64,000 bases of DNA from Afifellaceae bacterium (lineage in GTDB: Bacteria > Pseudomonadota > Alphaproteobacteria > Rhizobiales > Afifellaceae). The translations under genes were made by a program, and so were the position numbers. Each line of letters opens with the position of its first letter. The first letter of the stretch is position 1. Positions 3,414 to 34,293 of the stretch are shown piece by piece. The notes under the pieces were generated by a model. The model was not told the DNA's origin and searched no databases. It worked only from the letters and a program-made list of their open reading frames with translations. The stretch spans positions 124,001 to 188,000 of the forward strand of contig JANQRH010000013.1 of NCBI GenBank assembly GCA_028284625.1, in the 5' to 3' direction.

Positions 3414-3447
3414 TTGGCGCCTCCCTGCGTGCGGTTTGTGCCCATCC

Positions 3448-3804: not shown

Positions 3805-3807
3805 ATT

Positions 3808-6953: not shown

Positions 6954-6981
6954 CGGCCGCGCGCCTGCGGCGCCCGCATTG

Positions 6982-7647
6982 CTAAGCGCTGTCGTGCAAT
7001 CCGTAGCCTTCGTTCTTCATCGCGAGACGCACCGCCTCGATCTCAGAACCCGGCAGCACCGCTGGCCCACCGATCAGCAGCGCGTGATAGTACTGCTTGG
7101 CGATCGTCTCCAACTCCACCGCCAGCCACATCGCTTTGTCGAGATCGGCGCCGGCGGCGATCATGCCGTGATTGGCCAATAGGCACCCGTTGCGGCCTTC
7201 AATGGCGCGGAGCACGTTCTCCGACAGCGCCTTAGTTCCGAAGGTCGCATATTCCGCGCAGCGAATGTCGTTCCCGCCGAACGCGGCGATCATGTAGTGA
7301 CACGCCGGAATCGACCGCCGCGCAATCGACAGCACTGTGGCGAAGGTCGCGTGCGTATGCACGATCCCGTGCACATCCGGCCGTGTGCGCATGATGTCCA
7401 GGTGGAAGCGCCACTCCGTGGAGGGCGGCAGCTCGCCCTCCCAGGACCCATAATCCCGGTCGATCGGCAGCGACGCGATCATGGAGGGCTGCATGTCGTC
7501 ATAGGGAATTGCGGTGGGTGTGATCAGCATGCGGTCGCCGCAACGCGCCGAGATGTTGCCCGACGTGCCCTGATTCAGGCCGTGGGCGTTCATCCAGCGT
7601 GCCTTCTCGATGATGGCGAGCCGCAACGCGGTTTCTGCCTCACTCAA
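6982..7647 (-). CDS. Class II aldolase/adducin family protein
   Basis: This 221-residue protein matches the L-fuculose-phosphate/L-ribulose-phosphate aldolase family: NQGTSGNIS phosphate-binding segment (residues 23-31), VHTHATFATVL with the two zinc His near residues 98-100, and NHGMIAAG with the third zinc His near 160. The start is a TTG at 7647 with ACAGGAGAG just upstream. It would cleave a sugar-phosphate to a triose or glycolaldehyde product in the cytoplasm. It is convergent to the oxidoreductase operon and divergent from the MFS gene. Confidence 0.9.
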   Translation of the reverse strand: MSEAETALRLAIIEKARWMNAHGLNQGTSGNISARCGDRMLITPTAIPYDDMQPSMIASLPIDRDYGSWEGELPPSTEWRFHLDIMRTRPDVHGIVHTHATFATVLSIARRSIPACHYMIAAFGGNDIRCAEYATFGTKALSENVLRAIEGRNGCLLANHGMIAAGADLDKAMWLAVELETIAKQYYHALLIGGPAVLPGSEIEAVRLAMKNEGYGLHDSA

Positions 7648-7731
7648 TTCGCTCTCCTGTGACGATGGGGTTCTTGCGGGGGCGCCGCGATGCGCGCGAC
7701 ATTGCCCGCCGCGGCTGAGAGGTCAAGGCGG

Positions 7732-9021: not shown

Positions 9022-10357
9022 CGATCCGCTCGCGGTCGGTCGTCACGTCCTTGGTGGCGTTGCGCGTATCGACGACGAGCTTCGCCGCGCCGACCACCGC
9101 CGCCCAGTCGATGCCGTCATGGTCGGTCACGATGAGCACGACGTCGTAATCCGCGATCGAAGCCGGCTCCAACGGCACGGAGCGGCGTCCGGCGAGTGCG
9201 GCGTGCTGGCGCGACGGGCCGATCACCGGGATGAAAGGATCGTGATAGTCGATGGTGGCGCCGCGCGCTTCCAGCAGCTCCATGATCCTCAGCGCCGGGC
9301 TTTCGCGCATGTCGTCGACGTTTTTCTTGTAGGCGACGCCGACGATCAACACGCGCGCGCCCTTCAAGCTCTTGCCACTCTGTCGGTCGAGCGCCGCTGC
9401 GAGGCGATCCACGACGATCCGTGGCATCGCCGTGTTGATCTCGCCGGCAAGTTCCACGAACCGCACCGGCACATCGAAGGCGCGCGCCCGCCAGGCGAGG
9501 TAGAAGGGATCGATGGGAATGCAATGGCCGCCGAGCCCTGGGCCGGGATAAAACGGCATGAAGCCGAACGGCTTGGTGCGCGCCGCCTCAATCACCTCCC
9601 AGATGTCGATGCCCATCGCTTCATAGACGAGCTTCAATTCGTTCACGAGCGCGATGTTGACGGCGCGGAAGACGTTTTCGGTGATCTTCACCGCCTCCGC
9701 CGTCTCCGTTGAGGAGACCGGCACAACGCGCTCTACGAAGGGACTATAAAGCGCGGTCGCAGCCTCAAGCGCTTTCGGTCCGTCGCCGCCGATCACTTTG
9801 GGGATACGCGCGGCGGTGAAGTCGGAGCCGGGATCTTCGCGCTCCGGCGAGTAGGCGAGGAAGAGCGTCTCTTCCGAGACCAGACCGCCGGCCTCCAATA
9901 TCGGCTTCAGCACGTCACTTGTGGTGCCGGGATAGGTGGTGGACTCAAGCACGACGAGCTGACCTGCGCGCAGATGCGGCGCAAGCGATTCCGCTGTGGA
10001 GACGACAAAGCTCAGATCGGGCTCGCGATTGCGATTGAGCGGCGTCGGCACACAGATCAGGATCGCATCGGCCGCATTGAGGCGCGCGATATCAGCCGTC
10101 GCCTCAAAGCCATTCGCCAACGCCTCGCGCACGGCCTCTTCGCCGATATGTCCGATATACGAGCGGCCGTTATTCAGCGCCGCCGCCTTGGCCGGGTCGA
10201 TGTCGAAGCCGATCACCGCATTGCCGGACCTGCCGAGCGCCAGCGCCAGCGGCAGCCCGACATAGCCAAGGCCGATGACGCCGACATTTGCCTGACGCGC
10301 GCCGATCCGCTGCATCAGCGCGGCAAAAAAGGCCTCGTCCCTGGGGCCTTCCGACAT
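9011..10357 (-). CDS. Nucleotide-sugar (UDP-sugar) dehydrogenase
   Basis: A 448-residue protein with NAD-binding GVIGLGYVGLPLALALG at residues 23-39, the PGLGGHCIPIDP active-site segment with the catalytic Cys, and the C-terminal KGARVLIVGVAYKKNVDD nucleotide-binding domain. The layout matches the UDP-N-acetyl-glucosamine/UDP-glucose 6-dehydrogenases (WbpA/TviB/WecC group). It makes a uronic-acid sugar nucleotide by two NAD oxidations for surface polysaccharide. The next gene on the same strand encodes a Wza-like exporter, supporting that role. Confidence 0.9.
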   Translation of the reverse strand: MSEGPRDEAFFAALMQRIGARQANVGVIGLGYVGLPLALALGRSGNAVIGFDIDPAKAAALNNGRSYIGHIGEEAVREALANGFEATADIARLNAADAILICVPTPLNRNREPDLSFVVSTAESLAPHLRAGQLVVLESTTYPGTTSDVLKPILEAGGLVSEETLFLAYSPEREDPGSDFTAARIPKVIGGDGPKALEAATALYSPFVERVVPVSSTETAEAVKITENVFRAVNIALVNELKLVYEAMGIDIWEVIEAARTKPFGFMPFYPGPGLGGHCIPIDPFYLAWRARAFDVPVRFVELAGEINTAMPRIVVDRLAAALDRQSGKSLKGARVLIVGVAYKKNVDDMRESPALRIMELLEARGATIDYHDPFIPVIGPSRQHAALAGRRSVPLEPASIADYDVVLIVTDHDGIDWAAVVGAAKLVVDTRNATKDVTTDRERIVKA

Positions 10358-10469
10358 GACGCCTCCGGCGTTCGTTGGACGGTGAAAGTGAGGCCGGACT
10401 ACGCCCTAGAGGACCGTCGAGAGTCAATGCGCGCGCCAGGCAAAGGGGCAGCAGCGCGTCGGCGTATCC

Positions 10470-11627
10470 TCAGTCAGACAGCCTGTCTTCGATCGAGGTA
10501 ATAGTGGCGGCGGTGCCGAGGCTGCCAGACACGATCCCGAGCGCTTTCTGCAAGCTGATCGACGACGCATTGGACACGTAGAGGATGTCGTTGTCGCGCA
10601 TGAGGAAACGCTGCGCTGAAAAGAGGCCCACCGGGTCTTTGAAATCGAGCTTATAGACCACCGGAATACCAGCCGCTTCAGGCGCCGGAATCTGGTTGCC
10701 GCCGCCGACCTGCGCCGCGCGGATCAGCTGGTACATCTTCGGATCTTCGTAGCGGAACACGAACACGCTGCGCGGATCGGCCCGACGGTCAAGCAGGCCA
10801 CCGGCGCGCCCGACGGCTTGCGCCAAGGTCAGGCGGTCGGTCTGGAAGGGGTAGGTGGCGTTGCGCGCCGTCGCACCGAACGCCGTAAAGGTCTGCGGGT
10901 CGGTGAAGACATAGATCAGGTCGCTAGGCCGCACATAGATGTTCTGCCCAGGGTCGCGCACGATCCGCGCCAAGCTCACCGTGGCGCTCCTGCCGTTGCG
11001 CGTCAGGCGAACAAAGCTGTCGTAGTCGGGAGCGCGCGAGCCGCCCAGCGTGGCGATAATATCGAGCAACCGATCGCCCTTGAGCGACAGCGGCACGCGG
11101 GAGGGTTTTGCGACGTCGCCGGCGACCGTAACGAACGTCGACGCCGCACTGGCCACGGTGACGACGACCTGCGGTTCGATCGCTTTGTCCTTCAGCTCCG
11201 CTTCGATGGCTTCGCTGACCTGCTCGGGCGTGCGCCCGGCCACCGGCACGCGGCCGACATAGGGCATGGAGAGCGTGCCGTCGCGCGCCACCGGCTGCGG
11301 CGGAAGGCTGACGCTCTTCGATCCACTGATCGAATTGGGGTCGCCGGAGAAGAGGCCGCCGGCAGCAGCCTCGAATATCGTGACCACGATCTGGTCGCCG
11401 ACCCCGATGGTCAGGTTCGGCGAGCCCCCGCCCATTCCAAACGTCGCCGCGAGATTGTCGGCCGGCTGCGACGCCAGAATTTCAGAGATGGTCTGATTGA
11501 GCGCAATGACGGTGAATTGCGGTGCGGCGCTTTCATTCTCAGAGAGAATGGCCGAGCGGTTGGGGCCGGAGGACGGCAGGCAGCCCGCCAGCACCGGAAC
11601 CAACGCCAGTAAGACTAGAAAACGCAT
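10470..11627 (-). CDS. Polysaccharide export lipoprotein (Wza/OPX family)
   Basis: The 385-residue protein starts with a lipoprotein signal peptide ending LAGC (MRFLVLLALVPVLAGC), so it is anchored in the outer membrane through Cys. The middle has the polysaccharide export domain (GVGDQIVVTIFEA, then DGTLSMPYVGRVPVAG) followed by two SLBB-like repeats. Length is close to Wza. Family members form the outer-membrane channel for capsule or exopolysaccharide. ATG 11627 is chosen because it places the signal peptide at the N terminus. No tyrosine kinase, glycosyltransferase or polymerase is adjacent, so the locus is partial. Confidence 0.9.
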   Translation of the reverse strand: MRFLVLLALVPVLAGCLPSSGPNRSAILSENESAAPQFTVIALNQTISEILASQPADNLAATFGMGGGSPNLTIGVGDQIVVTIFEAAAGGLFSGDPNSISGSKSVSLPPQPVARDGTLSMPYVGRVPVAGRTPEQVSEAIEAELKDKAIEPQVVVTVASAASTFVTVAGDVAKPSRVPLSLKGDRLLDIIATLGGSRAPDYDSFVRLTRNGRSATVSLARIVRDPGQNIYVRPSDLIYVFTDPQTFTAFGATARNATYPFQTDRLTLAQAVGRAGGLLDRRADPRSVFVFRYEDPKMYQLIRAAQVGGGNQIPAPEAAGIPVVYKLDFKDPVGLFSAQRFLMRDNDILYVSNASSISLQKALGIVSGSLGTAATITSIEDRLSD

Positions 11628-11777
11628 ACGTCGAGCCACCGTCCTGCCAGCGTGACCTGATATCACCAACCTGCCGCGGCGGAAAGTGGACCCTACACGC
11701 CCCGGCCCCGAGACGCGCCCAAGGCGCGCTTTGTGCCTTTCCCGCAACACCGGAAATCCGGGGCGAAAATGTGGCGG

Positions 11778-12767
11778 CTACGCCGCCCTAGAGAGCAATG
11801 CAGTAAGCTCCTCGCGGCTCATCGGCGGTGTGGGAGCGACAGCGGAGAGCCCGAGCCGCTCAGCGTCCGGCGGACGCTGATAGAGCACGCCGAGCGCCGT
11901 TGGCTCGTCATCGCTGCCAAATCCCGCCAGCGCCATGGCGCGCGTCAGGTTCGTCTCGTCGTGAACGGCAAGCGATTCGACCGGATGGTCGGGTCCGACC
12001 GCCACGACACGGAACGCGCCCTCCGATTCGTCGAAGATGAGGCCCTTGTCCTTTTCCTTGCCGAACACCATCGGTTCGCCATGGACCAGGCGGATGCCGG
12101 CATCGGCCGCCGTCGCCTTCTCGCCGAGCGGGCCGAAGGCGCCATCAAAATAGATGATGCAGTTCTGCAGGATCTCCACCAGCGACGTGCCTTGATGCGC
12201 GTGCGCGCGTACCAGCATCCCCGGCAGGTGGTCCTGCATGGAATCGACACTGCGCGCCACGAACGAGGCGCCGGCGCCGAGCGCCAGCCGCGCCGCATTG
12301 ACCGGCTGCTCGACCGACCCGCCTGGCGTCGACGGCGAGCGTGTGCCGATCGGCGAGGTCGGCGAATACTGGCCCTTGGTCAGCCCGTAGATCTCGTTGT
12401 TGAGCAGGAGCAGATTGAGATCGACGTCGCGGCGGAACGTGTGGACGAGATGGTTGCCGCCGATGGACAGGAAGTCGCCATCGCCGCCGACGACCCATAC
12501 GTCGAGCTCCGGATTGGCGAGTTTCACGCCCGTCGCCACGGCTGGCGCGCGGCCGTGGATGGTGTGGAAGCCATAGCTCGCCACATAATAGGGAAAGCGC
12601 GCAGCGCACCCGATACCGGAGATGAAGACCACTTCGTCCGGCACGCGCCCGATCTCCGCAAGCGCGGAGCGCACGCCCTTCAAGATGGCATAGTCACCGC
12701 AGCCGGGGCACCAGCGCACCTCTTGGTCGGTGGTGAAATCCTTGGGCGAAAGCGGAATGGCGTTCAT
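11778..12767 (-). CDS. korB: 2-oxoacid:ferredoxin oxidoreductase, beta subunit
   Basis: A 329-residue protein with WCPGCGDYAIL (iron-sulfur/TPP-binding Cys pair), SGIGCAARFPYY, and GGDGDFLSIGGNH with the thiamine-diphosphate GDG motif, followed by NNEIYGLTKGQYSPT. This is the beta subunit of the 2-oxoglutarate:ferredoxin oxidoreductase (KorB) type, which decarboxylates a 2-oxoacid to acyl-CoA and reduces ferredoxin. It overlaps the alpha gene stop (ATGA, 12764-12767), so the two are translated together. 2-Oxoglutarate is the likely substrate; other 2-oxoacids cannot be excluded. Confidence 0.93.
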   Translation of the reverse strand: MNAIPLSPKDFTTDQEVRWCPGCGDYAILKGVRSALAEIGRVPDEVVFISGIGCAARFPYYVASYGFHTIHGRAPAVATGVKLANPELDVWVVGGDGDFLSIGGNHLVHTFRRDVDLNLLLLNNEIYGLTKGQYSPTSPIGTRSPSTPGGSVEQPVNAARLALGAGASFVARSVDSMQDHLPGMLVRAHAHQGTSLVEILQNCIIYFDGAFGPLGEKATAADAGIRLVHGEPMVFGKEKDKGLIFDESEGAFRVVAVGPDHPVESLAVHDETNLTRAMALAGFGSDDEPTALGVLYQRPPDAERLGLSAVAPTPPMSREELTALLSRAA

Positions 12768-14653
12768 CGGCTGTCATCCGGAAGGTAGGCGGCGAACCGC
12801 GTCTCCAGGTCGGAGACCATGAAGGGGCGGCCGTTGATCTGCGTGACGGCCTCCACCGGCAGCAGATAGGTCGACCGCAGGATATTGGTGAGCTGGCCGG
12901 TGTTCATCTCCGCGCAGACCACCGCCTTGAAGCGGCGCAGGATGGCTTCCAGCCCGGAGGGCAGTGGCCAAAGCTGCCGCAGATGCAGATGCGTGACCTT
13001 GTGCCCGGCGTCGCTCAGATTGCGCCGCGCCTGCAGGATCGATCCGTAGGTCGAGCCCCAGCCGATGACCAGAAGGTCGCCCTCGTCGGGGCCCTCTTGC
13101 ATCGTGGCGTGTTCCGCGCGGTCGGCAATGCGGGCGATCTTCTCCGCCCTGAGCCGCACCATATGCTCATGATTGTCCGGATCGTAGGAGATATTGCCGG
13201 TGACGGAATCCTTCTCCAATCCGCCGACGCGATGGGCAAGGCCTGGTGTGCCGGGCGCGATCCATTTACGCGCCAGCGTCTCCTTGTCCCGAGAATAGGC
13301 CGTGACTTCATCGTCGGAAGCATCGTCAGCGCGCGGCTTGAGATCGGGCAGCGCCTCCGGATGGGGGACGGGCCAGTCGCTGACCGCATTTGCTAGAAAA
13401 GCGTCCGACAAGACGATCACTGGCGTGGTTGCTTCAATCGCGATGCGTGCCGCATCGAGCATGATGGCGAAGCAGTCAGCCGGCGTTGCCGGCGCCAGCA
13501 CCGCCAAAGGTGCTTCGCCGTGGCGACCGAAGATCGCCATCTCCAGATCGCTTTGCTCCGGCTTGGTCGGCATGCCGGTCGACGGACCGGCGCGCTGCAC
13601 ATCGATGACGATGAGCGGCAGCTCCGCGGTGACCGCCAGGCCCAGCGCCTCTGTCTTCAGCGCCAGGCCCGGCCCGGAGCTTGCCGAGACGCCGAGCTGT
13701 CCGGCATAGGAGGCGCCGATCGCGGCACAGATCGCGGCGATCTCGTCCTCAGCTTGGTACGTGCGCACGCCCGATTTGATCTTGGCGAGCGCATGCAGCA
13801 TCGCCGAGGCCGGGGTGATGGGATAGGAGCAATAGAACACGCTCTTCCCGCTGAGCGCGCCGGCGGCCGCCACACCCATCGCCATGGCGTCGGTGCCCGA
13901 CGTCATACGCGCCAAGCCGGTGCGCTTCGGCGCGCGGGTGATCTCAACCACCTCCGGCAGCGCCAACTCCATGGTCTCGCCATAGGCGTAGCCGGCCTTT
14001 AGTGCTGCTGCGTTCGCTCCCGCAAGTGCCTCATTCGCCTTGAAGCGCTCCGCGACCCAGGCGAGCGTCTGATCCGGCAACTGGCCGCAGAGCCAGAGCG
14101 TCAGGCCAAGCGCCCAGAAATTCTTGGCGCGCCCGCCGTCCTTGCGGCCGAGACCGAACTCAGCAACCGCTTCAAGCGTGCGCTTCGTGATCTCCGCGGT
14201 GATGATGCGATAGGGGGCTTGCTCGCTGTGATCTACCGGATCGCCCGCGAGGCCCGCTTTCTGATAGGCACGCTCGTTGAAGGCGCCTTCATCGATGAGC
14301 ACGGTTCCCCCGCGCTTCAGGAATTCGATGTTGGTGGCGAAGGCGGCCGGGTTGAAGGCCACAAGCATGTCGGCCTCGTCGCCGGGTGTGAGCACTTCGC
14401 CGGAGCCGAACTGCACCTGATAGGCCGAGACGCCGAATGTCGTGCCGGTCGGCGCGCGGATCTCCGCCGGAAATTCCGGCAGCGTCATCAGGTCGGCGCC
14501 CTTGGCCGCGGCGGCGACGGCGAACTGCCCGCCAAGCAGCTGAACGCCGTCGCCGGAATCGCCGGCGAACCGGACGACCTGGCTGCGTGCCGCGGTCTCC
14601 GCAGCGGACTGGGACTGAACCGACGGTCGTTCGGCGGTCTCACCAAGGCTCAT
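12764..14653 (-). CDS. korA: 2-oxoacid:ferredoxin oxidoreductase, fused gamma-alpha subunit
   Basis: The 629-residue protein begins with the gamma domain (FAGDSGDGVQLLGGQ, residues 29-43), then the alpha pyrimidine-binding domain from about residue 245 (GTDAMAMGVAAAG, YPITPASAMLHAL) and SASSGPGLALKTEALG. This fused gamma-alpha form is typical of the two-subunit KorAB enzymes found in aerobes and some microaerophiles. Together with the downstream beta subunit it forms the complete enzyme. Its position next to citrate synthase suggests use in the TCA cycle. Confidence 0.93.
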   Translation of the reverse strand: MSLGETAERPSVQSQSAAETAARSQVVRFAGDSGDGVQLLGGQFAVAAAAKGADLMTLPEFPAEIRAPTGTTFGVSAYQVQFGSGEVLTPGDEADMLVAFNPAAFATNIEFLKRGGTVLIDEGAFNERAYQKAGLAGDPVDHSEQAPYRIITAEITKRTLEAVAEFGLGRKDGGRAKNFWALGLTLWLCGQLPDQTLAWVAERFKANEALAGANAAALKAGYAYGETMELALPEVVEITRAPKRTGLARMTSGTDAMAMGVAAAGALSGKSVFYCSYPITPASAMLHALAKIKSGVRTYQAEDEIAAICAAIGASYAGQLGVSASSGPGLALKTEALGLAVTAELPLIVIDVQRAGPSTGMPTKPEQSDLEMAIFGRHGEAPLAVLAPATPADCFAIMLDAARIAIEATTPVIVLSDAFLANAVSDWPVPHPEALPDLKPRADDASDDEVTAYSRDKETLARKWIAPGTPGLAHRVGGLEKDSVTGNISYDPDNHEHMVRLRAEKIARIADRAEHATMQEGPDEGDLLVIGWGSTYGSILQARRNLSDAGHKVTHLHLRQLWPLPSGLEAILRRFKAVVCAEMNTGQLTNILRSTYLLPVEAVTQINGRPFMVSDLETRFAAYLPDDSR

Positions 14654-17685: not shown

Positions 17686-18018
17686 TCATTCCGTTCTTAA
17701 CAGCAGGACCACCCCGGCCGGATCGGACGTCCAGTGTCCATTGACGCCATCGAGCGGCTCAAGCTCGTCGCGTTTCGGGCTGCCGAGCTTCGCCAAGGAT
17801 TGGGCTGGGTCGTCCGTGATCAACTCAAGCCATACGTCCACCTGGCTCTGCCTTTCGATGCGGTCGATCCATAAGGTCATGTCGCCGAATGCAAAGCAGA
17901 CGCTGTTGGCAAGTTCCCTTGTGACCTCAAGTCCGACGCGGTCGCGGTAATACGCGACGGTGTCGTCCCACCGATGAAGCGGGACTTTGATCGCGATGTT
18001 TTTCCCCGGCCGGATCAT
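17686..18018 (-). CDS. VOC (glyoxalase/bleomycin-resistance fold) protein, last gene of the RiPP operon
   Basis: This 110-residue protein has a single VOC-like beta-alpha-beta module: NIAIKVPLHRWDDTVAYYRD, then GLEVTRELANSVCFAFGDM, WLELITDDPAQSLAKL, and a C-terminal SDPAGVVLLLR strand. The start ATG at 18018 overlaps the TfuA-like stop (ATGA), so it is translationally coupled to the peptide-modifying genes. VOC proteins are metal enzymes or ligand-binding resistance proteins. Here it could tailor the modified peptide, bind a metal with it, or give immunity; none is proven. No other gene between it and the convergent thiolase. Confidence 0.82.
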   Translation of the reverse strand: MIRPGKNIAIKVPLHRWDDTVAYYRDRVGLEVTRELANSVCFAFGDMTLWIDRIERQSQVDVWLELITDDPAQSLAKLGSPKRDELEPLDGVNGHWTSDPAGVVLLLRTE

Positions 18019-18788
18019 GAGCGAACCTCTATCGGCGCGGCGTTCGCGCCCGTATCCCGCCCGGCGAGCTTCTCCGCCCGCCGCAGCGTCAGGAGCCATG
18101 TCGCCGTGGGCTCCACGCGCCAATCCGGCGGCGGGCGCCGCTCCGGCTCCAGATAGTCCATATAGGCGAGCAACGCCAAAGCGTCCTGGCGCTTCACGTC
18201 AAGCCGGCAGCTCTTGATCAGTGCCTTCAACCGTTCGCCGCGCGAGCCCTTGTCGAACCCGGCATGTGCGAGGATCGCTGGATAGGTGCGTTCCTTGAAG
18301 AACAGCGCGCGTGCGCTTCTATCCAGGTGCGCCGCCTCATCTGCACTGATCGCGCCAAGCTTGGCGAAGTGCTGGATCGTCGCCTCGACATTGACCAGCG
18401 CCTCCGTCAGCGGCGCATGGTCGAGCTCCTCCGGCGCGTGAAGCTGTGCCACGGCCGCATCGTCCACAAGCTCGCCGGAATGGTAACGCTCAAACACCGC
18501 CCCGATTCCGATCATGCCGAAGGCGGCGCATTCCGCAGCGCGCAGCGCACCCATGCTCGCCGCGCCATAGATCGCAACGCCCTGTTCGATCGCAAAGAGG
18601 ATTTCCTTGTGCCAGACGGCGGCGACATCTTCGTAGCGGCCGTCGATCAGCCCGATGGCCGTGGCGCCCTCCACGACCGCACGCGCAATGTCACCTTGGC
18701 CGGCAGGTGCGCAACAACGAAGCGCTTCGGAATGCTTGGCCGCCCAGTTCGTGCCGTGGAGGCTCGGGCCCGCGAAGAGAACCTTCAT
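18015..18788 (-). CDS. TfuA-like protein, YcaO partner
   Basis: A 257-residue protein beginning MKVLFAGPSLHG and continuing with ARAVVEGATAIGLIDGRYEDVAAVWHKEILFA and VAIYGAASMGALRAAE, the hallmark pattern of the TfuA-like core domain. In methanogens and in thioamide-type RiPP pathways TfuA acts with YcaO, apparently handling sulfur delivery for backbone thioamidation. The start at 18788 overlaps the ycaO stop (ATGA, 18785-18788) and its stop overlaps the VOC start. This fixes it as the partner of the adjacent YcaO. The C-terminal part has no recognisable domain. Confidence 0.92.
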   Translation of the reverse strand: MKVLFAGPSLHGTNWAAKHSEALRCCAPAGQGDIARAVVEGATAIGLIDGRYEDVAAVWHKEILFAIEQGVAIYGAASMGALRAAECAAFGMIGIGAVFERYHSGELVDDAAVAQLHAPEELDHAPLTEALVNVEATIQHFAKLGAISADEAAHLDRSARALFFKERTYPAILAHAGFDKGSRGERLKALIKSCRLDVKRQDALALLAYMDYLEPERRPPPDWRVEPTATWLLTLRRAEKLAGRDTGANAAPIEVRS

Positions 18789-20053
18789 TGCGCATCCATG
18801 ATGGCTTTGAGCGCCCGCCGACCATAGCGCTGGCGGCGGTCGCCGGGCGGACTTTCCAGCCCCGGAATGAGCGCCCGCGCAGCCGCAAAGCCGCCGTGTT
18901 CTTCTCCCGCATCCAGTGTCACAATCACCGCCGATCCGATCCCCGCATCGACAAGGCGCTGGAGGATGAACCGCAGATTGTCGGCCGGATCCGGCACGTC
19001 GGCGAGGTCGGTGGAGGGCCGCGCATGCGGCGTCGCACTGAGATAGGCCGTCAGGTCGGCCTTGAGCTCCGTTCCGTAGAGATTCGGATCGAAATCGTCG
19101 CGCGCCCCGGTGATACTGGTGACGCGGCTCTGCGCCGCTTCGGTGATGGCGCGAATGGCGGCGCGCGCCGGCGACGGGTGGGCGCCCATGCCGCTGGAGA
19201 GGTCGAAGTGCTTCCACAAATCCTCGCGGCCTTTAGGTGTGGGCGCGATGGTAGAGAAGTAGACCGGCACCCCGATGTCGCTGGTGATGTCAAAGAGCCG
19301 GAGTTGGAAACCCGCCGCGTCGATCTGCTCGGCGAGATCGGTGACCGCGTCGTCCTCAAGCGTCGCCGGGTCGACGCAGCGATCGTGCACCTCTTGATCG
19401 GAACGGAAGTTCCAGAGCGCGCTTGCGTCGCGTTCGATGCGCTCCAGCAGCCCATGCACGACCGCCTCTAAAAGCACATTGCCCGACGCCAGCCCGTCGC
19501 TCGTCTGCCAGTATCGGCTCGGCGTCTCGCCCTTGCCGGCCGGATCGAGGGTGATCATGTCGGCAGGCACCCACGCCGCCGCATGCTGAAGAAGGTCGAA
19601 GCCCTCCACCCAGGCGACGCTCTCCGTCTCCGAAAGCGGCTGCTCGCCGCGCTTCAGCATGTTGTTGAACGGCATGATGCGCTGGCCGTCGGCGGCGAGC
19701 GCCTGCATGGAGCCGGTGCGCACCGGGATGGCACAGGCCTCGGCGGTCGCCAGCTCCGCCGCTTCCATCAATGCGGAAGCTTGCGCGGCCGGCTCGTCGA
19801 GGCCCTTGCCCTGGCTGACGGCAAGCGTCTTGGAATTGGGCCGGACCGCCATCCACACAGGGATGCCGATCCGGTCCAGTCCCGTCACATCGGCCAGCCG
19901 GGTGATCCCGAACCGGCCGAACATCGACCGCACGCGGTCGACGGTTTCGTCTGAGCGGCGCAGCCGATCGGAGTGATCCTCGGCTGCGCCGCGCGTCTTC
20001 AACAGCGCGATCTCCGCGTCAAGGAAGTCGGGAAGTCGCGCTGCATCCATCAC
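18785..20053 (-). CDS. YcaO-domain protein (TfuA-associated, probable peptide thioamidation)
   Basis: A 422-residue single-domain YcaO. Recognisable parts are ASALMEAAELATAEACAIPV and LLERIERDASALW (the ATP/Mg-binding Glu-rich helices) and HPSPARAAIRAITEAAQSR, which also carries family-conserved acidic residues. It has no C-terminal PxPxP tail, which is present in most azoline-forming YcaOs, and no fused E1-like or leader-binding partner is nearby. With TfuA next door, ATP-dependent backbone amide activation for thioamidation is most likely. The start is GTG 20053 or ATG 20050, 6-9 bases after the precursor stop, with GAGG upstream. The presumed substrate is the repeat precursor directly upstream. 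Confidence 0.9.
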   Translation of the reverse strand: MMDAARLPDFLDAEIALLKTRGAAEDHSDRLRRSDETVDRVRSMFGRFGITRLADVTGLDRIGIPVWMAVRPNSKTLAVSQGKGLDEPAAQASALMEAAELATAEACAIPVRTGSMQALAADGQRIMPFNNMLKRGEQPLSETESVAWVEGFDLLQHAAAWVPADMITLDPAGKGETPSRYWQTSDGLASGNVLLEAVVHGLLERIERDASALWNFRSDQEVHDRCVDPATLEDDAVTDLAEQIDAAGFQLRLFDITSDIGVPVYFSTIAPTPKGREDLWKHFDLSSGMGAHPSPARAAIRAITEAAQSRVTSITGARDDFDPNLYGTELKADLTAYLSATPHARPSTDLADVPDPADNLRFILQRLVDAGIGSAVIVTLDAGEEHGGFAAARALIPGLESPPGDRRQRYGRRALKAIMDAQ

Positions 20054-20059
20054 TGCGCC

Positions 20060-20773
20060 TCAGCGGCTCGGGAAGTAGTGATGCGAAGCGGCATCCGAAC
20101 GCCCTTCCGCTTCCTGAACGACTTCGACGCCACGGTTCTTCGGGAAGTAGTGATGCGGGGCCGCATCGGAACGGCTTTCTGTCGCTCCCGCGATCTCAAT
20201 GCGCTCCGCTTTACCGCCCCTGTTGGGGAAGTAGTGATGCGAAGCGGCATCCGAACGCCCCTCCGCCTCCTGAACGACTTCGACGCCACGGTTCGGGAAG
20301 TAGTGATGCGACGCCGCGTCGGAGCGGGCCTTTGCCTCACCAGCAACTTCGATCGTCTCCGCCTTGCCACCCCTGTTGGGGAAGTAGTGGTGCGAAGCGG
20401 CGTCGGAACGCCCCTCCGCTTCCTGAACGACCTCGACGCCGCGGTTCGGGAAGTAGTGATGCGAGGCCGCATCGGAACGGCTTTCTGCCGCCCCCGCGAT
20501 CTCGATGCGCTCCGCCTTGCCACCTCTGTTGGGGAAGTAGTGATGCGAAGCGGCGTCGGAACGGCCCTCTGCTTCCTGAACGACATCGACGCCACGGTTC
20601 GGGAAGTAGTGATGCGAGGCCGCATCAGGCCGCGCTCTGGTAACCGCCTCGAGGTCGGCATCCTGGAAATCGTGCCCGTCAGTAGCATCGGCTCGCTCAA
20701 CCGTGCCGGCCTCTAGGTCAGCGATCCACATTGAATCGTCTTTGGCAAGGCGGAATAGAACGATATACGTCAT
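20060..20773 (-). CDS. Repetitive RiPP precursor peptide with eight HHYFP cores
   Basis: The 237-residue product has a leader (residues 1-47, MTYIVLFRLAKDDSMW at the N terminus, then acidic) followed by eight repeats. Each holds (R)SDAASHHYFPNRG. HHYFP starts at residues 54, 77, 105, 128, 156, 179, 207 and 231. Two spacer types alternate: a 23-residue unit with VEVVQEAEG and a 28-residue unit with GKAERIEIAG. Copy 7 is altered (AAPHHYFPKNRG) and copy 8 ends HHYFPSR at the stop. The start ATG has AAAAGGAGAAAG upstream, a strong ribosome-binding site. The next gene is YcaO, then TfuA, so the repeats are the likely modified cores. Flanking Arg residues could be cleavage sites (inference). I know of no described family with this core. 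Confidence 0.92.
   Translation of the reverse strand: MTYIVLFRLAKDDSMWIADLEAGTVERADATDGHDFQDADLEAVTRARPDAASHHYFPNRGVDVVQEAEGRSDAASHHYFPNRGGKAERIEIAGAAESRSDAASHHYFPNRGVEVVQEAEGRSDAASHHYFPNRGGKAETIEVAGEAKARSDAASHHYFPNRGVEVVQEAEGRSDAASHHYFPNRGGKAERIEIAGATESRSDAAPHHYFPKNRGVEVVQEAEGRSDAASHHYFPSR
20063..20632 (-). repeat. Eight-unit tandem coding repeat with alternating 69- and 84-base periods
   Basis: On the plus strand the conserved block GAAGTAGTGATGCG (one copy has GGTG) begins at 20072, 20144, 20228, 20297, 20381, 20450, 20534 and 20603. The spacings are 72, 84, 69, 84, 69, 84 and 69 bases. The 72 reflects a three-base insertion in copy 7. The array therefore grew as a 153-base two-unit block. 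The reading frame is kept throughout, so selection is on the protein. Confidence 0.95.
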
Positions 20774-20828
20774 AGCTTTCTCCTTTTCTGGTCGACAAAA
20801 ATTTGGCGCAAAACGCCGCCATCACGCG

Positions 20829-20846
20829 CAGGCTCAGTCGAGCCTG
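20829..20846. promoter_or_regulatory. Inverted repeat between regulator end and precursor start
   Basis: CAGGCTC-AGTC-GAGCCTG is a perfect 7-base inverted repeat lying 56 bases upstream of the precursor start codon and 186 bases downstream of the regulator stop. It could be a terminator hairpin of the regulator transcript (no U-tract seen on that strand) or an operator for the precursor operon. The rest of 20774-21031 holds no supported gene. Confidence 0.35.
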
Positions 20847-21031
20847 GAGTGAACTTCAGTTCGTTTTCGAGGGTGTGCCGGCTATTGCCGGCCGGGCCCC
20901 AACCGCCCGTTGCTATGCTTGCGCTGCTCTACCGTGTTGGCGTGCAGAGCGACGCCAGCAGACGCTCAGCGTGTCGGAGGGGCAGAATGAGTTTTTCTCA
21001 TGATCACCTCACTTCGTGTTGTCCGCCCGGT

Positions 21032-23020
21032 TCATTCGAAGCCCGCTTCTCGAAGCCCTTGCTCATAGTGCTTCGCGTAGTGGGGGTCTTGAATCGGCAC
21101 GATCGAGAGCCAGTTTGATATGCTGAAGCCCGGGTGGATATCCTTGGTCTTCTCCACGTAGAAGCGCGCTGTTTGCGCGTCGCCCAGCATCGCGTGGGAT
21201 GCGGCCATGAGCCGATAGGCCGCGCTTTGGTCACGCATGTGACCCATGCATTCAATCGCATCGCTGTAGCGCTGCAGGTGGTAATTGGTGCCTGCTGCGG
21301 CCCACCAATATTGGTCCGGGCAAAGGGGATTCAGCTCGATTGCTTTGGTTATCTTTTGAAGTGCCGCTTGGAAGTCGCAAGTATGAGAGAACGCATCCGC
21401 CAAATCGTGCAGAAGGTCGGCGAATTGTGGACTGCGATCTTCAGCGTGGCCGAGGGCCGCGACGCTCTCGTCGAAGCGTCCGGCGTAAAGTCTGCACACG
21501 CCGAGCTCGCGATAGCCGCGGGCATCGTCCGGATCGATCTCCTGTGACAACAGCGCCAGCCGCTCCGCTTCCCCAAGAAGCTCACTGTCGCCGCGCGCCA
21601 TCAAAAGCCATTCCAGCAAATATGTTCTCGCCAGGGCGCTGAGCGCGGGCACGAAGCTTGAGCAAGCGCCGACCGCCGCCTTGAAGTGGCGCCTTGCGCG
21701 GCGAACGCTGGGCAGGTCCAGCGCCCGCAGATGCTTCTGGCCGGCCAGATAGAGATGGTAGGCCGTCGGATCGGGCAGAGTCTCGTAGCGCGCCAGTTCG
21801 GCGCGTTCGATCCGCTCGATCAGCGTCACGATGATCCGAACAGAGAGCTCGTTGTATTGGTGGGCGATCGTGTCCTGATCGAGCAGGTAGTTGTCCACCC
21901 AAAGAATCTCGCGTGTCGCAGCATCCAGCAAACTCACCCTAAGCGTCGGGTTGCTGCCGCGGATCTTGAGCCGCGTCTCCACGGCATAGGAAATTCGGAA
22001 CTTGCCGAGCAGTGCGTGCTTTCCGCTTCGGCTCAATCGCGCCGCCGTATAGGGCGCCACAACCGAAAGCGCCTTGGATCGGCAAAGCCCGATTGTCACA
22101 TCTTCAATCAGGGCATCCGCTAGTTGATGCGCAAAGTCCTGCCCGCCGAGCGGCGGGGGCGGCAGTACCGAGACCCGCGGTGTCTGCGCGCGATCAAGAA
22201 GCGGCAACAGTGAGTCATCGGGCTCAGGCGCAGTCGGATCCTGCTCACCCTCATCCAGCCCCGCATACGCAGGGGCGGCTACCGCCTTTGGCGCCGCTTT
22301 TGGCAACAGGGTCTGATAAAGCCCTCGCGTCGCCTCATCGGGCTGAACGTTCAGTTCATCGCCGAGGCTGGCCTTGAGGTGTTCGTACACGTCCCGGACA
22401 CGCGCCGGTTCGCCGTCTTCGGCATGAAGGCGCATCAGCGTTCGATGTGCGATCTCGTTGTAAGGGTCGACCTCGCGCAGCCGCCGCGCGGCAACCTTGA
22501 TCTTCACGCGGTCGGCCTTGCTGTCCAACGGCTCCAGCCGATTGGCCACCGTCGCCACGAAGGCGTCACGGAGAATGGTTCGCTGCTGCTGCAGCCAGGA
22601 TTGGAAGTCCGAACCCTCCCAATCGATGCCCTCCAAAAGGTCTCCGCAATAAAGATCGCAGAGCGTCTCAAGGTCGGCTGAATCCCGATCCGTCACGACC
22701 TTCTGGAACGCGATCAGATCGATAAAGGCGGAGGCGCTAACAAGCTCTACATGGTTTCGGCCGTTGCGGATGAGTTCAAAGCCATCTTCCTCTTGGCGCG
22801 TCGTCACACGCGACAGGAACTTGCGCAGATTGGCCGCGGCTGCCTTGGATTCGGAGTTTTCCCAGAGGAGCTGGCGCAGCGTGCCGCGGCGTGCCGGGCC
22901 GGCGCGCTCCGTTAGGACGAGATAGGCTAGCAGGGCAAATGTTTTGGCCGGCACGGCGATCGGGCGTTGCCGATCATCGAGCAATCGCGGCTGGCCAAAA
23001 AGCATAAGCCTGCACTTCAT
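21032..23020 (-). CDS. SARP/BTAD-type transcriptional regulator with TPR domain
   Basis: A 662-residue protein. Residues 1-95 are a winged-helix DNA-binding domain of the SARP/OmpR type (LMLFGQPRLLDD, FALLAYLVLTERAGPARRGTL, then LRKFLSRV). Residues about 100-245 are a bacterial transcriptional activation (BTAD) domain ending in RVRDVYEHLKASLGDEL. After a Pro-rich linker comes a TolB-N/adenylate-cyclase-associated-like domain (about 285-400), then TPR-like helices (about 420-640). Such proteins activate secondary-metabolite or stress operons. It lies upstream of the precursor operon on the same strand and divergent from the subtilase, so it is the likely local activator. Confidence 0.85.
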   Translation of the reverse strand: MKCRLMLFGQPRLLDDRQRPIAVPAKTFALLAYLVLTERAGPARRGTLRQLLWENSESKAAAANLRKFLSRVTTRQEEDGFELIRNGRNHVELVSASAFIDLIAFQKVVTDRDSADLETLCDLYCGDLLEGIDWEGSDFQSWLQQQRTILRDAFVATVANRLEPLDSKADRVKIKVAARRLREVDPYNEIAHRTLMRLHAEDGEPARVRDVYEHLKASLGDELNVQPDEATRGLYQTLLPKAAPKAVAAPAYAGLDEGEQDPTAPEPDDSLLPLLDRAQTPRVSVLPPPPLGGQDFAHQLADALIEDVTIGLCRSKALSVVAPYTAARLSRSGKHALLGKFRISYAVETRLKIRGSNPTLRVSLLDAATREILWVDNYLLDQDTIAHQYNELSVRIIVTLIERIERAELARYETLPDPTAYHLYLAGQKHLRALDLPSVRRARRHFKAAVGACSSFVPALSALARTYLLEWLLMARGDSELLGEAERLALLSQEIDPDDARGYRELGVCRLYAGRFDESVAALGHAEDRSPQFADLLHDLADAFSHTCDFQAALQKITKAIELNPLCPDQYWWAAAGTNYHLQRYSDAIECMGHMRDQSAAYRLMAASHAMLGDAQTARFYVEKTKDIHPGFSISNWLSIVPIQDPHYAKHYEQGLREAGFE

Positions 23021-23278: not shown

Positions 23279-24700
23279 ATGGAACGATACTACACCATCC
23301 TCACCGACAGGGGAGGCCGGTTCCCGGCGCGGCATCTTCTCGGGCGATCGGAGTTTGAGCAGCCTCTCGAGATGGCCTCCAGGCTCATGGCGGACCCGCC
23401 GCAGCCAGCCATCCATCGCGAGCGCTTGACGGCGCCGGAGCTTCAAGAATTGGAGCAGGAGCCTGATTTCGTCGCCGCGGCGGAGATCATGAGGACCAGG
23501 CTTCTGGCCCCAGTGGTGGAAGAGGTTGCGCAAGAGGTTGGCCCGCCGGTGACCAAACGGGTGACCAGGCGTCAGCGTCGGCAGTCCTGGGGAATCGGCG
23601 CGGTGGAGGCCGACAAGTCAAAGTTCACGGGTGCGGGGGTCACCGTGGCGCTCCTCGACACCGGAATTGACGCCTCGCACGCGGCTTTTGACGGGGTCGA
23701 ACTGGTGGAGCGGGACTTTACCGGCTTCGGGAACGGCGACCTCGACGGTCACGGCACGCATTGTGCTGGCGTTCTGTTTGGGCGCAACGTGGAGGGGGTA
23801 CGCATCGGTGTGGCGCCGGGAATCCGCAACGCTCTCATTGGAAAGATCGTTGGGCCGGAGGGCGGCGACACCGACATGATGGTTCGCGGCGTCTGCTGGG
23901 CACATGAAGGCGGCGCGCGCGTTATATCGATGTCGGCCGGCTTCGATTTCGACGCCACGTTGAACGAACGGCTCGCGCAAGGGTGGCCGTCAGGCCTTGC
24001 GACTTCCGCGACGCTGGAAGCCTATCGCAGCAATCTGAAGCTGCTGGATCGCTTGCTGCAGATGCTCCGCCTGCAAGAGCCCTCAACCGGCGGTGCGATT
24101 ATCGTTGCAGCGGCCGGCAACGACAGCAGCCGCGATGGGGCCAGCGAGTTCGTCACAAGCGCCTGCCCGCCGGCCTCGTCAGACAAGGTCATCTCTGTGG
24201 GCTCAATTGATCCCGATTCGTCCGGAACGGGCTACCGCGTGTCTAGCTTCTCAAACAGCAGCGTGGAGATCGTTGCGCCAGGACGCAACATCGTCTCGGC
24301 TGGCGTCGGAGGCGGGCTCAAGACCATGAGCGGCACCAGCGTGGCCGCGCCGCATGTGGCCGGCGTAGCAGCGCTCTGGTGGCAGGCGGTCCGGCAATCG
24401 GAGCTGCCCGCCAACGCCACTTTGGTGCGCGGCAAGCTGTTTGCGGGCGCGCGCAGCGTCGGTTTCGCTCCAGCCGTCCACCCGGCCGAGCGCGGCGCCG
24501 GGCGAATCGTGGCGCCGCAGGACGGATTGGCGGTTTCCACCCGCCGCGCGGCCTCGCCGGCTGAATGGCATGACCAGCTCTGTCCGGAACAGCCGGAAAT
24601 CGGCGCAAAACTGGCCGCTGGCGCGGTTGTGGAGCCGATTGCCGTCGGCGCCGGAGCCGCGAATTCCGGCCTGTCACGCAGCCGGCGGAGCCTCAGCTAG
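23279..24700 (+). CDS. Subtilisin-like (S8) serine protease
   Basis: The 473-residue protein has the complete catalytic triad: ALLDTGIDASH (Asp127), DGHGTHCAG (His158) and MSGTSVAAPHVAG (Ser354), plus the oxyanion Asn in VAAAGND (Asn281). Residues 1-105 form a prodomain-like or substrate-binding region rich in Glu and Arg. There is no hydrophobic signal peptide at the chosen ATG, suggesting a cytosolic enzyme. It is divergent from the SARP-like regulator by 258 bases. Subtilases mature several RiPPs (for example cyanobactins), so it may cut the repeat precursor; this is inference from context. Confidence 0.88.
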   Translation: MERYYTILTDRGGRFPARHLLGRSEFEQPLEMASRLMADPPQPAIHRERLTAPELQELEQEPDFVAAAEIMRTRLLAPVVEEVAQEVGPPVTKRVTRRQRRQSWGIGAVEADKSKFTGAGVTVALLDTGIDASHAAFDGVELVERDFTGFGNGDLDGHGTHCAGVLFGRNVEGVRIGVAPGIRNALIGKIVGPEGGDTDMMVRGVCWAHEGGARVISMSAGFDFDATLNERLAQGWPSGLATSATLEAYRSNLKLLDRLLQMLRLQEPSTGGAIIVAAAGNDSSRDGASEFVTSACPPASSDKVISVGSIDPDSSGTGYRVSSFSNSSVEIVAPGRNIVSAGVGGGLKTMSGTSVAAPHVAGVAALWWQAVRQSELPANATLVRGKLFAGARSVGFAPAVHPAERGAGRIVAPQDGLAVSTRRAASPAEWHDQLCPEQPEIGAKLAAGAVVEPIAVGAGAANSGLSRSRRSLS

Positions 24701-29323: not shown

Positions 29324-30770
29324 ACCCGTGGTGCGCTGCAACGGTCTTCAAGACAGAGAAGCCGTAGAGCGCCTCAAATCCTTTTTCCCGCCCGTGGCCG
29401 GACTTGCCTATGCCGCCGAAGGGCAGTTCCACGCCGCCGCCCGCGCCGTAATTGTTGATGAACACCTGGCCGGCGCGGATCGCCTTGGCCATGCGGAACT
29501 GGCGCGCGCCGTCATTGGTCCATACGCCCGCGACCAGCCCGTACGGCGTTCCGTTAGCGATGGACACGGCCTCCGCCTCGTCGTCGAATGGGATGACAAC
29601 CTGCACCGGCCCAAAGACCTCCTCCTGCGCAAGGGCGTGATCGGCATCCACGTCGGCGATCAACGCAGGCCTGATGTAGTGTCCGCCGCTCGGTGCGTCA
29701 TCGACAATTGCGCCTTCCGCAACGATGCGCGGCCGGTTGGCGCGCCCCATGGCGAGATAGGAGTCCACGCGCGCCTTCTGTCGTTCCGAGATCAGTGGCC
29801 CGACATCGAGATCGCTGAGCGCCGGACCGACGCGGAGCGCCCGATAGGCGTCCGACAGGCGCTCCAGCAATTGGTCATGGATACGCGTCTCAACGACGAT
29901 CCGCGAGGCGGCGGAGCATGTCTGGCCGGCGTTCTGGATGCCGGCTTTGACGAGAAAGGGCAGGGCAGCGTCGAGGTCGGCATCGGCGAACACGACTTGC
30001 GGCGACTTTCCGCCAAGCTCCAGCGTCACCGGCACGACATTGCCGCCGGCCGCAGCCTGGACCGCGCCGCCGACCTCCACGGAGCCGGTGAACGAGATGT
30101 GGTCGACGCCCGGATGCGCGGCAAGCGCGGCGCCGGCCTCTTCGCCCAGCCCCGGCACGACATTGAGCGCGCCGGCCGGCAATCCGGCTTCCTCCGCGAT
30201 GCGAGCGAAGGCCAGGGCAGTCAGAGACGCGTCCTCCGCCGGCTTCAGCACCGCGGCGTTGCCCATGGCGAGTGCGGCGCCGACGCTCCGTCCGATGATC
30301 TGCATCGGATAGTTCCACGGGATGATGTGACCGGTCACGCCATGCGGCTCGCGCAGCGTGAAGACGGTGTAGCCCTCAAGGTAGGGGATGGTGGCGCCGT
30401 GAATCTTGTCGACCGCGCCGGCATAGAACTCCATGTAGCGCGCCAGAGCTACCGCATCGGCGCGCGCCTGCGTGAGCGGCTTGCCGACGTCGCGCGCCTC
30501 AAGCTCCGCCAGCATGTCGAGCCGCTCTGTCACCAGTGCACCGATGCGCGCCAATAGACGGCCGCGATCGACCGCGGTCGCCCGCCCCCACGCGCCGGAA
30601 AGCGTCGCTCGTGCAGCCGCAACGGCGCGGTCGATGTCGTCGGCGCCGCCGCGCGCGATGGCGCCGAAATGGCGGCCTGTCGAGGGGTCCTCCACCGGCA
30701 GCATCTCACCACTGCCGGGCGTCACCCAGTCGCCGCCGATCAGAACTGTCTCGCTGTCGAAGGGGATCAT
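29322..30770 (-). CDS. Aldehyde dehydrogenase family protein
   Basis: The 482-residue protein contains LELGGKSPQVVFADADLD with the general-base Glu near residue 252, GQTCSAASRIVVE with the nucleophilic Cys near residue 286, and IPWNYPMQI cofactor contact (Asn). Length is standard. It oxidises an aldehyde to an acid with NAD(P). Its start ATG at 30770 overlaps the ABC ATPase stop (ATGA at 30767-30770), so it is co-translated with the peptide-type transporter and shares its substrate pathway. Confidence 0.93.
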   Translation of the reverse strand: MIPFDSETVLIGGDWVTPGSGEMLPVEDPSTGRHFGAIARGGADDIDRAVAAARATLSGAWGRATAVDRGRLLARIGALVTERLDMLAELEARDVGKPLTQARADAVALARYMEFYAGAVDKIHGATIPYLEGYTVFTLREPHGVTGHIIPWNYPMQIIGRSVGAALAMGNAAVLKPAEDASLTALAFARIAEEAGLPAGALNVVPGLGEEAGAALAAHPGVDHISFTGSVEVGGAVQAAAGGNVVPVTLELGGKSPQVVFADADLDAALPFLVKAGIQNAGQTCSAASRIVVETRIHDQLLERLSDAYRALRVGPALSDLDVGPLISERQKARVDSYLAMGRANRPRIVAEGAIVDDAPSGGHYIRPALIADVDADHALAQEEVFGPVQVVIPFDDEAEAVSIANGTPYGLVAGVWTNDGARQFRMAKAIRAGQVFINNYGAGGGVELPFGGIGKSGHGREKGFEALYGFSVLKTVAAHHG

Positions 30771-34226: not shown

Positions 34227-34293
34227 CAGACGTGGTCAGCGGGGAGGGCGCTCAGAAAGGCCCGGCCGACAGGCGCGGCCGGGCCCCGTCGCG

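What the first reader, a model, noticed from the sequence alone, without database searches (positions are those of the whole stretch)
17686..20773. Probable new thioamide-type RiPP locus: eight-core repetitive precursor with YcaO, TfuA-like and VOC genes
Seen in sequence: a 237-residue protein with eight in-frame DAASHHYFPNRG-type repeats, then YcaO, TfuA-like and VOC genes on the same strand, the last three linked by ATGA overlaps. Established: YcaO plus TfuA install backbone thioamides in McrA and in thioamide RiPPs, and some RiPP precursors, such as thiovarsolins, carry repeated cores. Inference: each HHYFP core is modified by this YcaO/TfuA pair. The His-His-Tyr-Phe core suggests metal binding or a novel modified peptide. 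The core does not match any family I know.
Basis: partly seen in the sequence, partly recalled or inferred. Interest (0 to 1): 0.95.

Follow-up and report, generated by a model that had tools for sequence, protein, structure and literature searches.

The report
Repeat peptide co-exchanged with its regulator
Next to two enzymes predicted to swap backbone oxygen for sulfur, this bacterium encodes a peptide with eight near-identical repeats; the peptide gene and the presumed sensing end of the neighbouring regulator form one sharply diverged block and appear to have been exchanged together, so the peptide is likely a modified signal that this regulator reads.

Summary
In detail: a 237-aa protein with eight DAA(S/P)HHYFP repeats, then YcaO, TfuA and a VOC-like gene on the minus strand. 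It belongs to a larger family. A leader (VVLG..G..GLWLVDLE.GTV), a GVDLAVA element and a variable core occur in 32 of 397 genomes of the order; in 28 the match lies directly upstream of a YcaO, two are cut by contig ends, two sit apart from YcaO.

Against the sister species, 15.6 kb align at 90% identity except one block (about 22090-20046, 67%). It covers most of the regulator's C-terminal half plus the precursor and stops at the precursor/YcaO junction, with synonymous change up to saturation. Phyllobacterium shows a second such event.

Best reading: a YcaO-TfuA RiPP cassette, predicted to be thioamidated, whose peptide is matched to the sensor end of its own regulator. VOC and the His-His pair are not conserved. 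Thioamidation, processing, export and sensing are untested. RRNPP-like peptide signalling in a Gram-negative is not excluded.

The parts
20060..20773 (-). precursor: leader plus eight repeated cores (237 aa)
   Evidence: homologues
20675..20773 (-). conserved leader (residues 1-33)
   Evidence: alignments; 81% identical to the sister species while the whole precursor is 55%
20063..20626 (-). repeat region, four copies of a two-core unit
18785..20053 (-). YcaO, likely backbone thioamidation enzyme
   Evidence: PF02624 E 1.3e-63; closest solved chain 6pe3 MJ1094, profile E 2.9e-59
18015..18788 (-). TfuA, likely sulfur-donating partner of YcaO
   Evidence: PF07812 E 6.6e-42; PDB 6xp8 E 7.9e-27
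17686..18018 (-). small VOC-like gene, found only in the same-genus locus among those searched
   Evidence: no Pfam/NCBIfam hit; tblastn match in 1 of 22 loci
21032..23020 (-). BTAD/TPR regulator; residues 1-240 presumed output half, about 241-662 presumed sensor half with TPRs
   Evidence: PF03704 E 6.9e-12 (residues 115-239) and TPR_2 E 6.2e-09; upstream of 45 of 46 precursor loci
20046..22090 (.). diverged block: regulator from about residue 310 to its end, intergenic region, precursor (the identity profile starts to fall near 22300, residue 240)
   Evidence: 33% mismatch inside vs 10% outside, LR 297.0 vs 44.8 maximum of 500 block permutations; profile; dS
23279..24700 (+). S8 subtilase beside the cassette in both genomes of the genus; possible core-releasing protease (weak inference)
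   Evidence: PF00082 E 9.3e-36; in 2 of 11 family genomes, the window's own included

Best explanation
The window holds a gene cassette of a BTAD/TPR regulator, a leader peptide with eight repeated cores, YcaO and TfuA; YcaO and TfuA are predicted to put thioamides into the cores, and the C-terminal half of the regulator likely recognises the resulting peptide, which would make the peptide its own pathway's signal. Shown by sequence: gene order, family-wide linkage, the repeat array under constraint, and one block of divergence that takes in most of the regulator's C-terminal half and the precursor and stops at YcaO. Inferred: the conserved leader and the GVDLAVA element guide YcaO-TfuA; R-S-D-A-A-S-H is the constant part of each unit and the following residues the specificity part; a host protease (perhaps the adjacent S8 subtilase in this genus) frees the units; and the peptide, inside the cell or after export and re-uptake, switches the regulator. 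The multi-core array would raise dose, since repeat expansion recurs in lineages with different core sequences.
For: (1) Linkage: 32 of 397 genomes of the order have the leader family at E<=0.01; all 32 are among the 62 with a YcaO at E<=1e-20 (hypergeometric 3e-30, relatedness ignored); in 28 of 32 the match ends 8-433 bp before the YcaO match on the same strand, 2 are at contig ends, 2 apart. Of 46 distinct precursor loci (one, L103, a marginal leader hit, E 0.041), 46 have a TfuA match beginning 0-57 bp behind the YcaO match and 45 the regulator upstream on the same strand; the 46th is a short contig with a regulator tail. (2) The two homologues away from YcaO still follow the regulator. 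(3) Block: window vs sister species, dS 0.30-0.42 in YcaO, TfuA, VOC, S8, thiolase, citrate synthase, korA, korB, IUNH and orf92, but 2.2 in the precursor and 0.47 to saturated in 60-residue windows of regulator residues 241-660, against 0.16-0.66 in residues 1-240; block 22090-20046, LR 297.0 vs null maximum 44.8. (4) Second event: L006, L008, L010 vs L015, block from about 6.1 to 7.15 kb = regulator residues about 433-674 + first precursor, ending before the second precursor; LR 213-218 vs null maxima 46-52. L015 and L018 share that stretch at 99-100% per 100 bp, while flanking windows range from 50 to 99%. (5) Over 17 Phyllobacterium loci, regulator C-half distance tracks precursor A (partial Mantel r 0.65) and B (0.63), P 0.0002, with YcaO, TfuA and N-half held; the N-half with the C-half held gives -0.45 and -0.42. 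(6) In 37 pairs with precursor identity under 0.65, C-half dS over the mean of N-half and YcaO dS has median 1.79; in 21 pairs with conserved precursor 1.07 (58 of the 80 pairs, saturated values capped at 3). (7) The C-half carries TPRs, a fold that binds peptides in other regulators (established knowledge).
Against: No thioamide, processing, export or binding was measured. Precursor and regulator are neighbours, so a random recombination tract can cover both. Only two independent block events are clear; L009 vs L013 is not significant (LR 30.7, null maximum 39.0). The same-type control L006 vs L010 also edged over its null (LR 17.3 vs 14.5, a conserved stretch at 7751-8226), so the permutation null is lenient. 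For L015 vs L018 the two-rate test picked a wider block (5333-9316), so the exact stretch rests on the profile. With only YcaO and TfuA held, the N-half also correlates weakly with the precursors (r 0.19 and 0.20, P 0.04 and 0.03). In genus g102 the precursor is nearly invariant (identity 0.83-1.00) and the C-half ratio stays at 0.78-1.25 except in one near-identical pair (1.78), so diversification is not general. The pairs are not independent and its cuts were set after seeing the data. No transporter was noticed inside the cassette (by eye, no dedicated search). Sinorhizobium meliloti Ak57 has regulator, precursor and YcaO but no TfuA behind YcaO, and two genomes separate precursor and YcaO.
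Confidence: 0.5

Rival explanations
1. An ordinary YcaO-TfuA natural-product cluster (for example a narrow-spectrum antibiotic) whose BTAD/TPR regulator is only a pathway activator; the precursor diversifies under arms-race selection and the adjacent regulator end hitchhikes on recombination tracts.
For: A YcaO-TfuA cluster makes a thioamidated natural product in Streptomyces (PMC6511847, passages); two plasmid records name the regulator 'peptide antibiotic resistance protein' and one names TfuA 'antibiotic resistance protein', labels without a test; core sequences vary between species.
Against: Both tracts end at or just behind the 3' end of the first precursor and extend only to the regulator side, sparing YcaO and, in Phyllobacterium, the second precursor. 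The precursor stays with the regulator where YcaO is not adjacent. No exporter or immunity gene was noticed in the cassette (by eye).
Confidence: 0.35
2. The repeat protein is modified by YcaO-TfuA but in another way (azoline or amidine), or works uncleaved as a modified repeat protein, for example a metal-binding or storage protein.
Against: No Cys in the precursor; TfuA behind YcaO in 46 of 46 precursor loci and nearest solved YcaO MJ1094, recalled as a thioamidation enzyme; the second His is not conserved and many relatives carry a single core.
Confidence: 0.1
3. The precursor is not a substrate of the adjacent enzymes; it is an unmodified peptide ligand of the regulator and YcaO-TfuA serve another target.
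For: Two genomes keep regulator and precursor together away from YcaO-TfuA; S. meliloti Ak57 lacks TfuA next to YcaO.
Against: In 28 of 32 genomes the precursor match lies directly upstream of YcaO, and all 32 hold a YcaO match at E<=1e-20.
Confidence: 0.05

Closest known systems
Thiovarsolin clusters (varA/varY/varT; Streptomyces varsoviensis; PMC6511847, passages)
   Same: Repetitive precursor next to YcaO and TfuA; precursor, YcaO and TfuA alone give a thioamidated product; no specific protease in the cluster
   Different: Core here is RSDAASHxxxP, not APR/GPR; a BTAD/TPR regulator is a near-constant partner; different phylum; no product known
TfuA-related proteobacterial clusters catalogued by genome mining (PMC8120280, passages)
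   Same: YcaO-TfuA pairs; over 500 in Rhizobium, so single-core relatives are probably in its tables
   Different: The passages seen do not describe this leader family, these repeats, the regulator linkage or block exchange; supplements could not be read
McrA thioamidation YcaO/TfuA (role recalled; MJ1094, PDB 6pe3; TfuA-domain protein 6xp8)
   Same: Closest solved relatives by sequence
   Different: Target there is one glycine of a protein (PMC5589413, abstract start in listing), here a repeat peptide
RRNPP peptide quorum sensing, and Rgg/SHP-controlled RaS-RiPPs (PMC10075063 and PMC8092268, abstract and outline)
   Same: Receptor encoded next to its propeptide; RiPP genes under a peptide-sensing regulator
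   Different: Firmicutes; pheromone without YcaO-TfuA; here a BTAD output domain and a Gram-negative; no sequence match to RRNPP receptors found
Polymorphic pheromone/receptor loci (pneumococcal pherotypes, search listing; comQXP and agr recalled)
   Same: Precursor and receptor sensing part vary together while neighbouring genes are conserved (recalled)
   Different: Interspecies comparison here; signalling not shown

Membership tests
YcaO-TfuA (thioamidated) RiPP clusters | adjacent ycaO and tfuA | tested here: met
YcaO-TfuA (thioamidated) RiPP clusters | precursor with conserved leader and variable core next to the enzymes | tested here: met
YcaO-TfuA (thioamidated) RiPP clusters | thioamide in the product | not testable with these tools
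   needs mass spectrometry
Thiovarsolin family | repeated core in the precursor | tested here: met
Thiovarsolin family | APR or GPR core | tested here: not met
   no APR or GPR in the 237 residues (read by eye); core definition
Thiovarsolin family | VarO heme-oxygenase-like gene | not tested
   no dedicated search; none noticed among neighbouring ORFs
RRNPP quorum-sensing systems | TPR-containing regulator next to a small propeptide gene | tested here: met
RRNPP quorum-sensing systems | receptor homologous to Rap/NprR/PlcR/PrgX/Rgg | tested here: not met
   phmmer: 51 PDB matches at E<=0.1 are engineered TPRs, OGT, PEX5 and other proteins, none named as an RRNPP receptor; sequence level only
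RRNPP quorum-sensing systems | propeptide exported and re-imported as a short peptide | not testable with these tools
   no signal-peptide tool; none recognised by eye
Polymorphic signal/receptor loci | block of divergence covering precursor and receptor sensing part, with conserved flanks | tested here: met
   two independent events
Polymorphic signal/receptor loci | specific activation of receptor by cognate peptide | not testable with these tools
   needs reporter assays

The most novel reading that the evidence does not exclude
A peptide pheromone system in Gram-negative Alphaproteobacteria: a multi-copy, YcaO-TfuA-thioamidated peptide read by a cytosolic BTAD/TPR receptor, with species-specific signal/receptor types exchanged as one DNA block. 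It would be the RRNPP logic built from unrelated parts, with a sulfur-modified signal.
Probability: 0.25. Interest if true: 0.93.

Novelty: new variant of a known kind. Interest (0 to 1): 0.75.

Why it matters
Genome mining has listed over a thousand proteobacterial YcaO-TfuA clusters, while the known YcaO-TfuA products came from Actinobacteria (PMC8120280, passages). This work gives one Hyphomicrobiales group a defined precursor (leader, GVDLAVA element, core unit) and a near-constant regulator partner, so substrate and product become testable. If the regulator reads the peptide, it would add modified-peptide signalling with exchangeable specificity to plant-associated and other Alphaproteobacteria, and thioamides would gain a regulatory role.

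Tried and rejected
Metal-binding via His-His: rejected as the family feature, since the second His varies. VOC as a core tailoring gene: not conserved in the loci searched. S8 subtilase as a general protease: only in the window's genus, 2 of 11 family genomes. A single origin of the multi-core state: the YcaO tree needs 6 changes between multi and single core (quick tree with several long branches). Homology of the leader to the long peptides of four distant loci (L109, L110, L112, L113) in the same slot between regulator and YcaO: not significant, probability 1.6%; a 47-52 aa peptide of second Rhizobiaceae cassettes showed no similarity to the leader. The leader family outside the order: 385 genomes searched across the class (some of the same order); the only match besides the window's own was marginal, E 0.0087. 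Literature for this family: searches listed nothing that describes it by title, abstract start or the passages I opened, in open-access PMC; a TfuA+SARP hit was an unrelated use of the acronym. Supplements and subscription papers were not readable, so 'not in print' is limited to these searches. Both protein searches scored only the 7997 and 7999 candidates sharing most words, so more relatives may exist.
Full report
WHAT IS THERE. The minus strand of window 23020-17686 reads: BTAD/TPR regulator (21032-23020), precursor (20060-20773), YcaO (18785-20053), TfuA (18015-18788), VOC-like gene (17686-18018). A subtilase (23279-24700) is divergent from the regulator. The precursor has a conserved leader of about 33 residues and eight cores in an alternating 23/28-residue spacing. 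Core copies differ almost only at third codon positions (7, 0, 72 differences at positions 1, 2, 3), so the amino-acid sequence is held while the DNA has drifted.

RELATIVES. Two protein searches found 16 homologues (sequences). In these plus the window and its sister species (18 proteins), 58 units fit the search pattern R[SAPTG].[APVS][APSNV][SANG][HL]; it misses the window's DAAPHH copy, and R and the allowed letters are set by the pattern. Among the 38 distinct 12-mers, position 4 is A in 36, position 6 S in 36, position 7 H in 33, and the next residue is H in only 10. A YcaO-based scan of named genomes gave 21 loci: one Afifellaceae MAG, 17 Phyllobacterium or 'Rhizobiales' genomes, one Pleomorphomonas, two Bradyrhizobium. 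Phyllobacterium loci carry two precursor genes, A with a single core and B with one to about eight units of the RSDPSDRAFSFDG or RSNPSERAHSAGPV kind. A leader HMM found 89 ORFs at E<=1 in the loci held (several loci overlap). In the 82-row locus table every precursor hit lies upstream of YcaO on its strand. The window's order is not named by the tools; the sister MAG is Afifellaceae, order Hyphomicrobiales.

LINKAGE. In 397 genomes of the order, 62 have a YcaO match at E<=1e-20 and 32 a leader match at E<=0.01, all 32 inside the 62. On coordinates, in 28 of 32 the leader match ends 8-433 bp before the YcaO match; two (G069, G295) are at contig ends; two (G033, G395) sit behind a regulator with no YcaO near, while the same genomes hold YcaO-TfuA elsewhere, in G395 behind a 212-aa ORF that reads like a shortened regulator (by eye). 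Of 82 rows, 46 distinct loci plus one duplicate carry the leader; 35 do not, two of them cut by contig ends. Of the 46, one (L103) is a marginal leader hit (E 0.041). 45 have the regulator upstream at E<1e-15; the 46th (L022) is a short contig with a regulator tail. Several loci without the leader keep regulator-YcaO-TfuA with other small ORFs between. Across the class, 385 genomes gave no convincing further case. The same cassette occurs on Rhizobium and Sinorhizobium plasmids: the YcaO of L074 matches 116 plasmid records at E<=1e-60, and the three regions opened have a 70-72 aa leader peptide between regulator and YcaO. One of them, S. meliloti Ak57, has no TfuA behind YcaO.

THE BLOCK. The sister species' locus (L005) is collinear with the window over 15.6 kb at 90% DNA identity, except one block. 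A two-rate scan puts it at 22090-20046 (33% vs 10% mismatch; LR 297.0, maximum of 500 block permutations 44.8); the identity profile starts to fall near 22300. The right edge is the junction of precursor stop (20060) and YcaO start (20053); the left edge lies in the regulator behind the BTAD domain (residue 240 by profile, 310 by scan). dS is 0.30-0.42 for ten surrounding genes, 2.2 for the precursor, and from 0.47 to saturation in 60-residue windows of regulator residues 241-660, against 0.16-0.66 in residues 1-240. High dS points to different ancestry of the block, not only to selection. In Phyllobacterium the same picture appears once more: L006, L008 and L010 differ from L015 in one block (about 6.1-7.15 kb; LR 212.6-218.3, null maxima 46.4-51.5) that covers the regulator's last about 240 residues and precursor A but not precursor B or YcaO. 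L015 and L018 are 99-100% identical per 100 bp over that stretch, with flanking windows from 50 to 99%, so an L018-like donor is the simplest source. For L015 vs L018 the scan itself chose a wider block (5333-9316); L009 vs L013 is not significant; and the same-type control L006 vs L010 slightly exceeded its null (17.3 vs 14.5), so the null is lenient. These are two independent events, not more.

TEST OF MATCHING. Across 17 Phyllobacterium loci, C-half distances track both precursors after YcaO, TfuA and N-half are held (r 0.65 and 0.63, P 0.0002). The N-half gives 0.19 and 0.20 (P 0.04, 0.03) with YcaO and TfuA held, and turns negative when the C-half is held too. Among 58 close pairs (of 80), 33 of 37 with divergent precursors (identity under 0.65) have a raised C-half dS ratio (>1.3) against 3 of 21 with conserved precursors. 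Pairs share sequences and the cuts were chosen afterwards, so this is indicative only. Genus g102 is the counter-case: its precursor is almost invariant and its C-half unremarkable in all but one near-identical pair.

HOW IT WOULD WORK. TfuA is described as a hydrolase that, with a thiocarboxylated carrier, supplies sulfide equivalents to YcaO substrates (PMC13063428, passages). By homology YcaO-TfuA would thioamidate the cores; the conserved leader and GVDLAVA element, repeated before each unit in several relatives, are the likely recognition parts (inference). The regulator's TPR half is the likely reader of the peptide, because the two are replaced together while enzymes and DNA-binding half stay. 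Whether the peptide leaves the cell is open; no exporter was noticed in the cassette (by eye). The repeat array has grown in several lineages (6 label changes on the YcaO tree).

WHAT IS KNOWN. Thiovarsolins are the nearest precedent for repeats with YcaO-TfuA; global mining has counted the pairs. RRNPP and Rgg/SHP systems are the nearest precedent for the logic, but the regulator shows no sequence kinship to those receptors, so this is filed as working like them, not as a member.

VERDICT. Observation confirmed; chemistry plausible and untested; the new element is the pairing of precursor and regulator sensor end.

Noticed in passing
L162 (own genome C12:219000-238000), 6703-13645: A second YcaO-TfuA locus: YcaO, a 461-aa TfuA, a gene with a HEXXH-like motif, a 183-aa protein ending in repeated SGANLG-type hexapeptides, then a protein that reads by eye like a class III cyclase-TolB-TPR fusion whose C-half is 31% identical to the window regulator's.
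   Followed up: partly
window 30767-35805: Genes that read by eye like an oligopeptide-type ABC importer (ATPases, permeases, binding protein) about 8-13 kb from the regulator; no evidence that they belong to the cassette.
   Followed up: no
L165 (CP090106, S. meliloti Ak57 plasmid) 1900-5170: Regulator, 71-aa leader peptide and YcaO with no TfuA behind; S. meliloti 1021 pSymB showed only a 4% partial match to this region in a megablast search.
   Followed up: partly
L086, L088, L090, L091, between regulator and YcaO: Second Rhizobiaceae cassettes carry an unrelated 47-52 aa peptide ending HALKFR or HALRFR.
   Followed up: partly
L110:8302-8976, L113:4596-5231 (minus): Long peptides with AGVQSQ or SQQAQQGVAVPE repeats between the same kind of regulator and a distant YcaO; similarity to the leader family not significant.
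   Followed up: partly
L166:1458-1883, L167:1456-1890 and L166:6017-6265, L167:5983-6234: Two Rhizobium-type cassettes are preceded by a helix-turn-helix gene and followed by an about 80-aa ORF.
   Followed up: no
L006:13214-14137, L011:13324-14220, L017:13181-14083, L021:13219-14169: Phyllobacterium-type genomes share a 300-aa protein rich in GQGQ/GNGN repeats downstream of the cassette, followed in L006 and L021 by a roughly 675-aa ORF.
   Followed up: no
L097, ORF ending about 400 bp before YcaO: A small ORF with repeated TQVCGKISPKAV units upstream of a distant YcaO.
   Followed up: no
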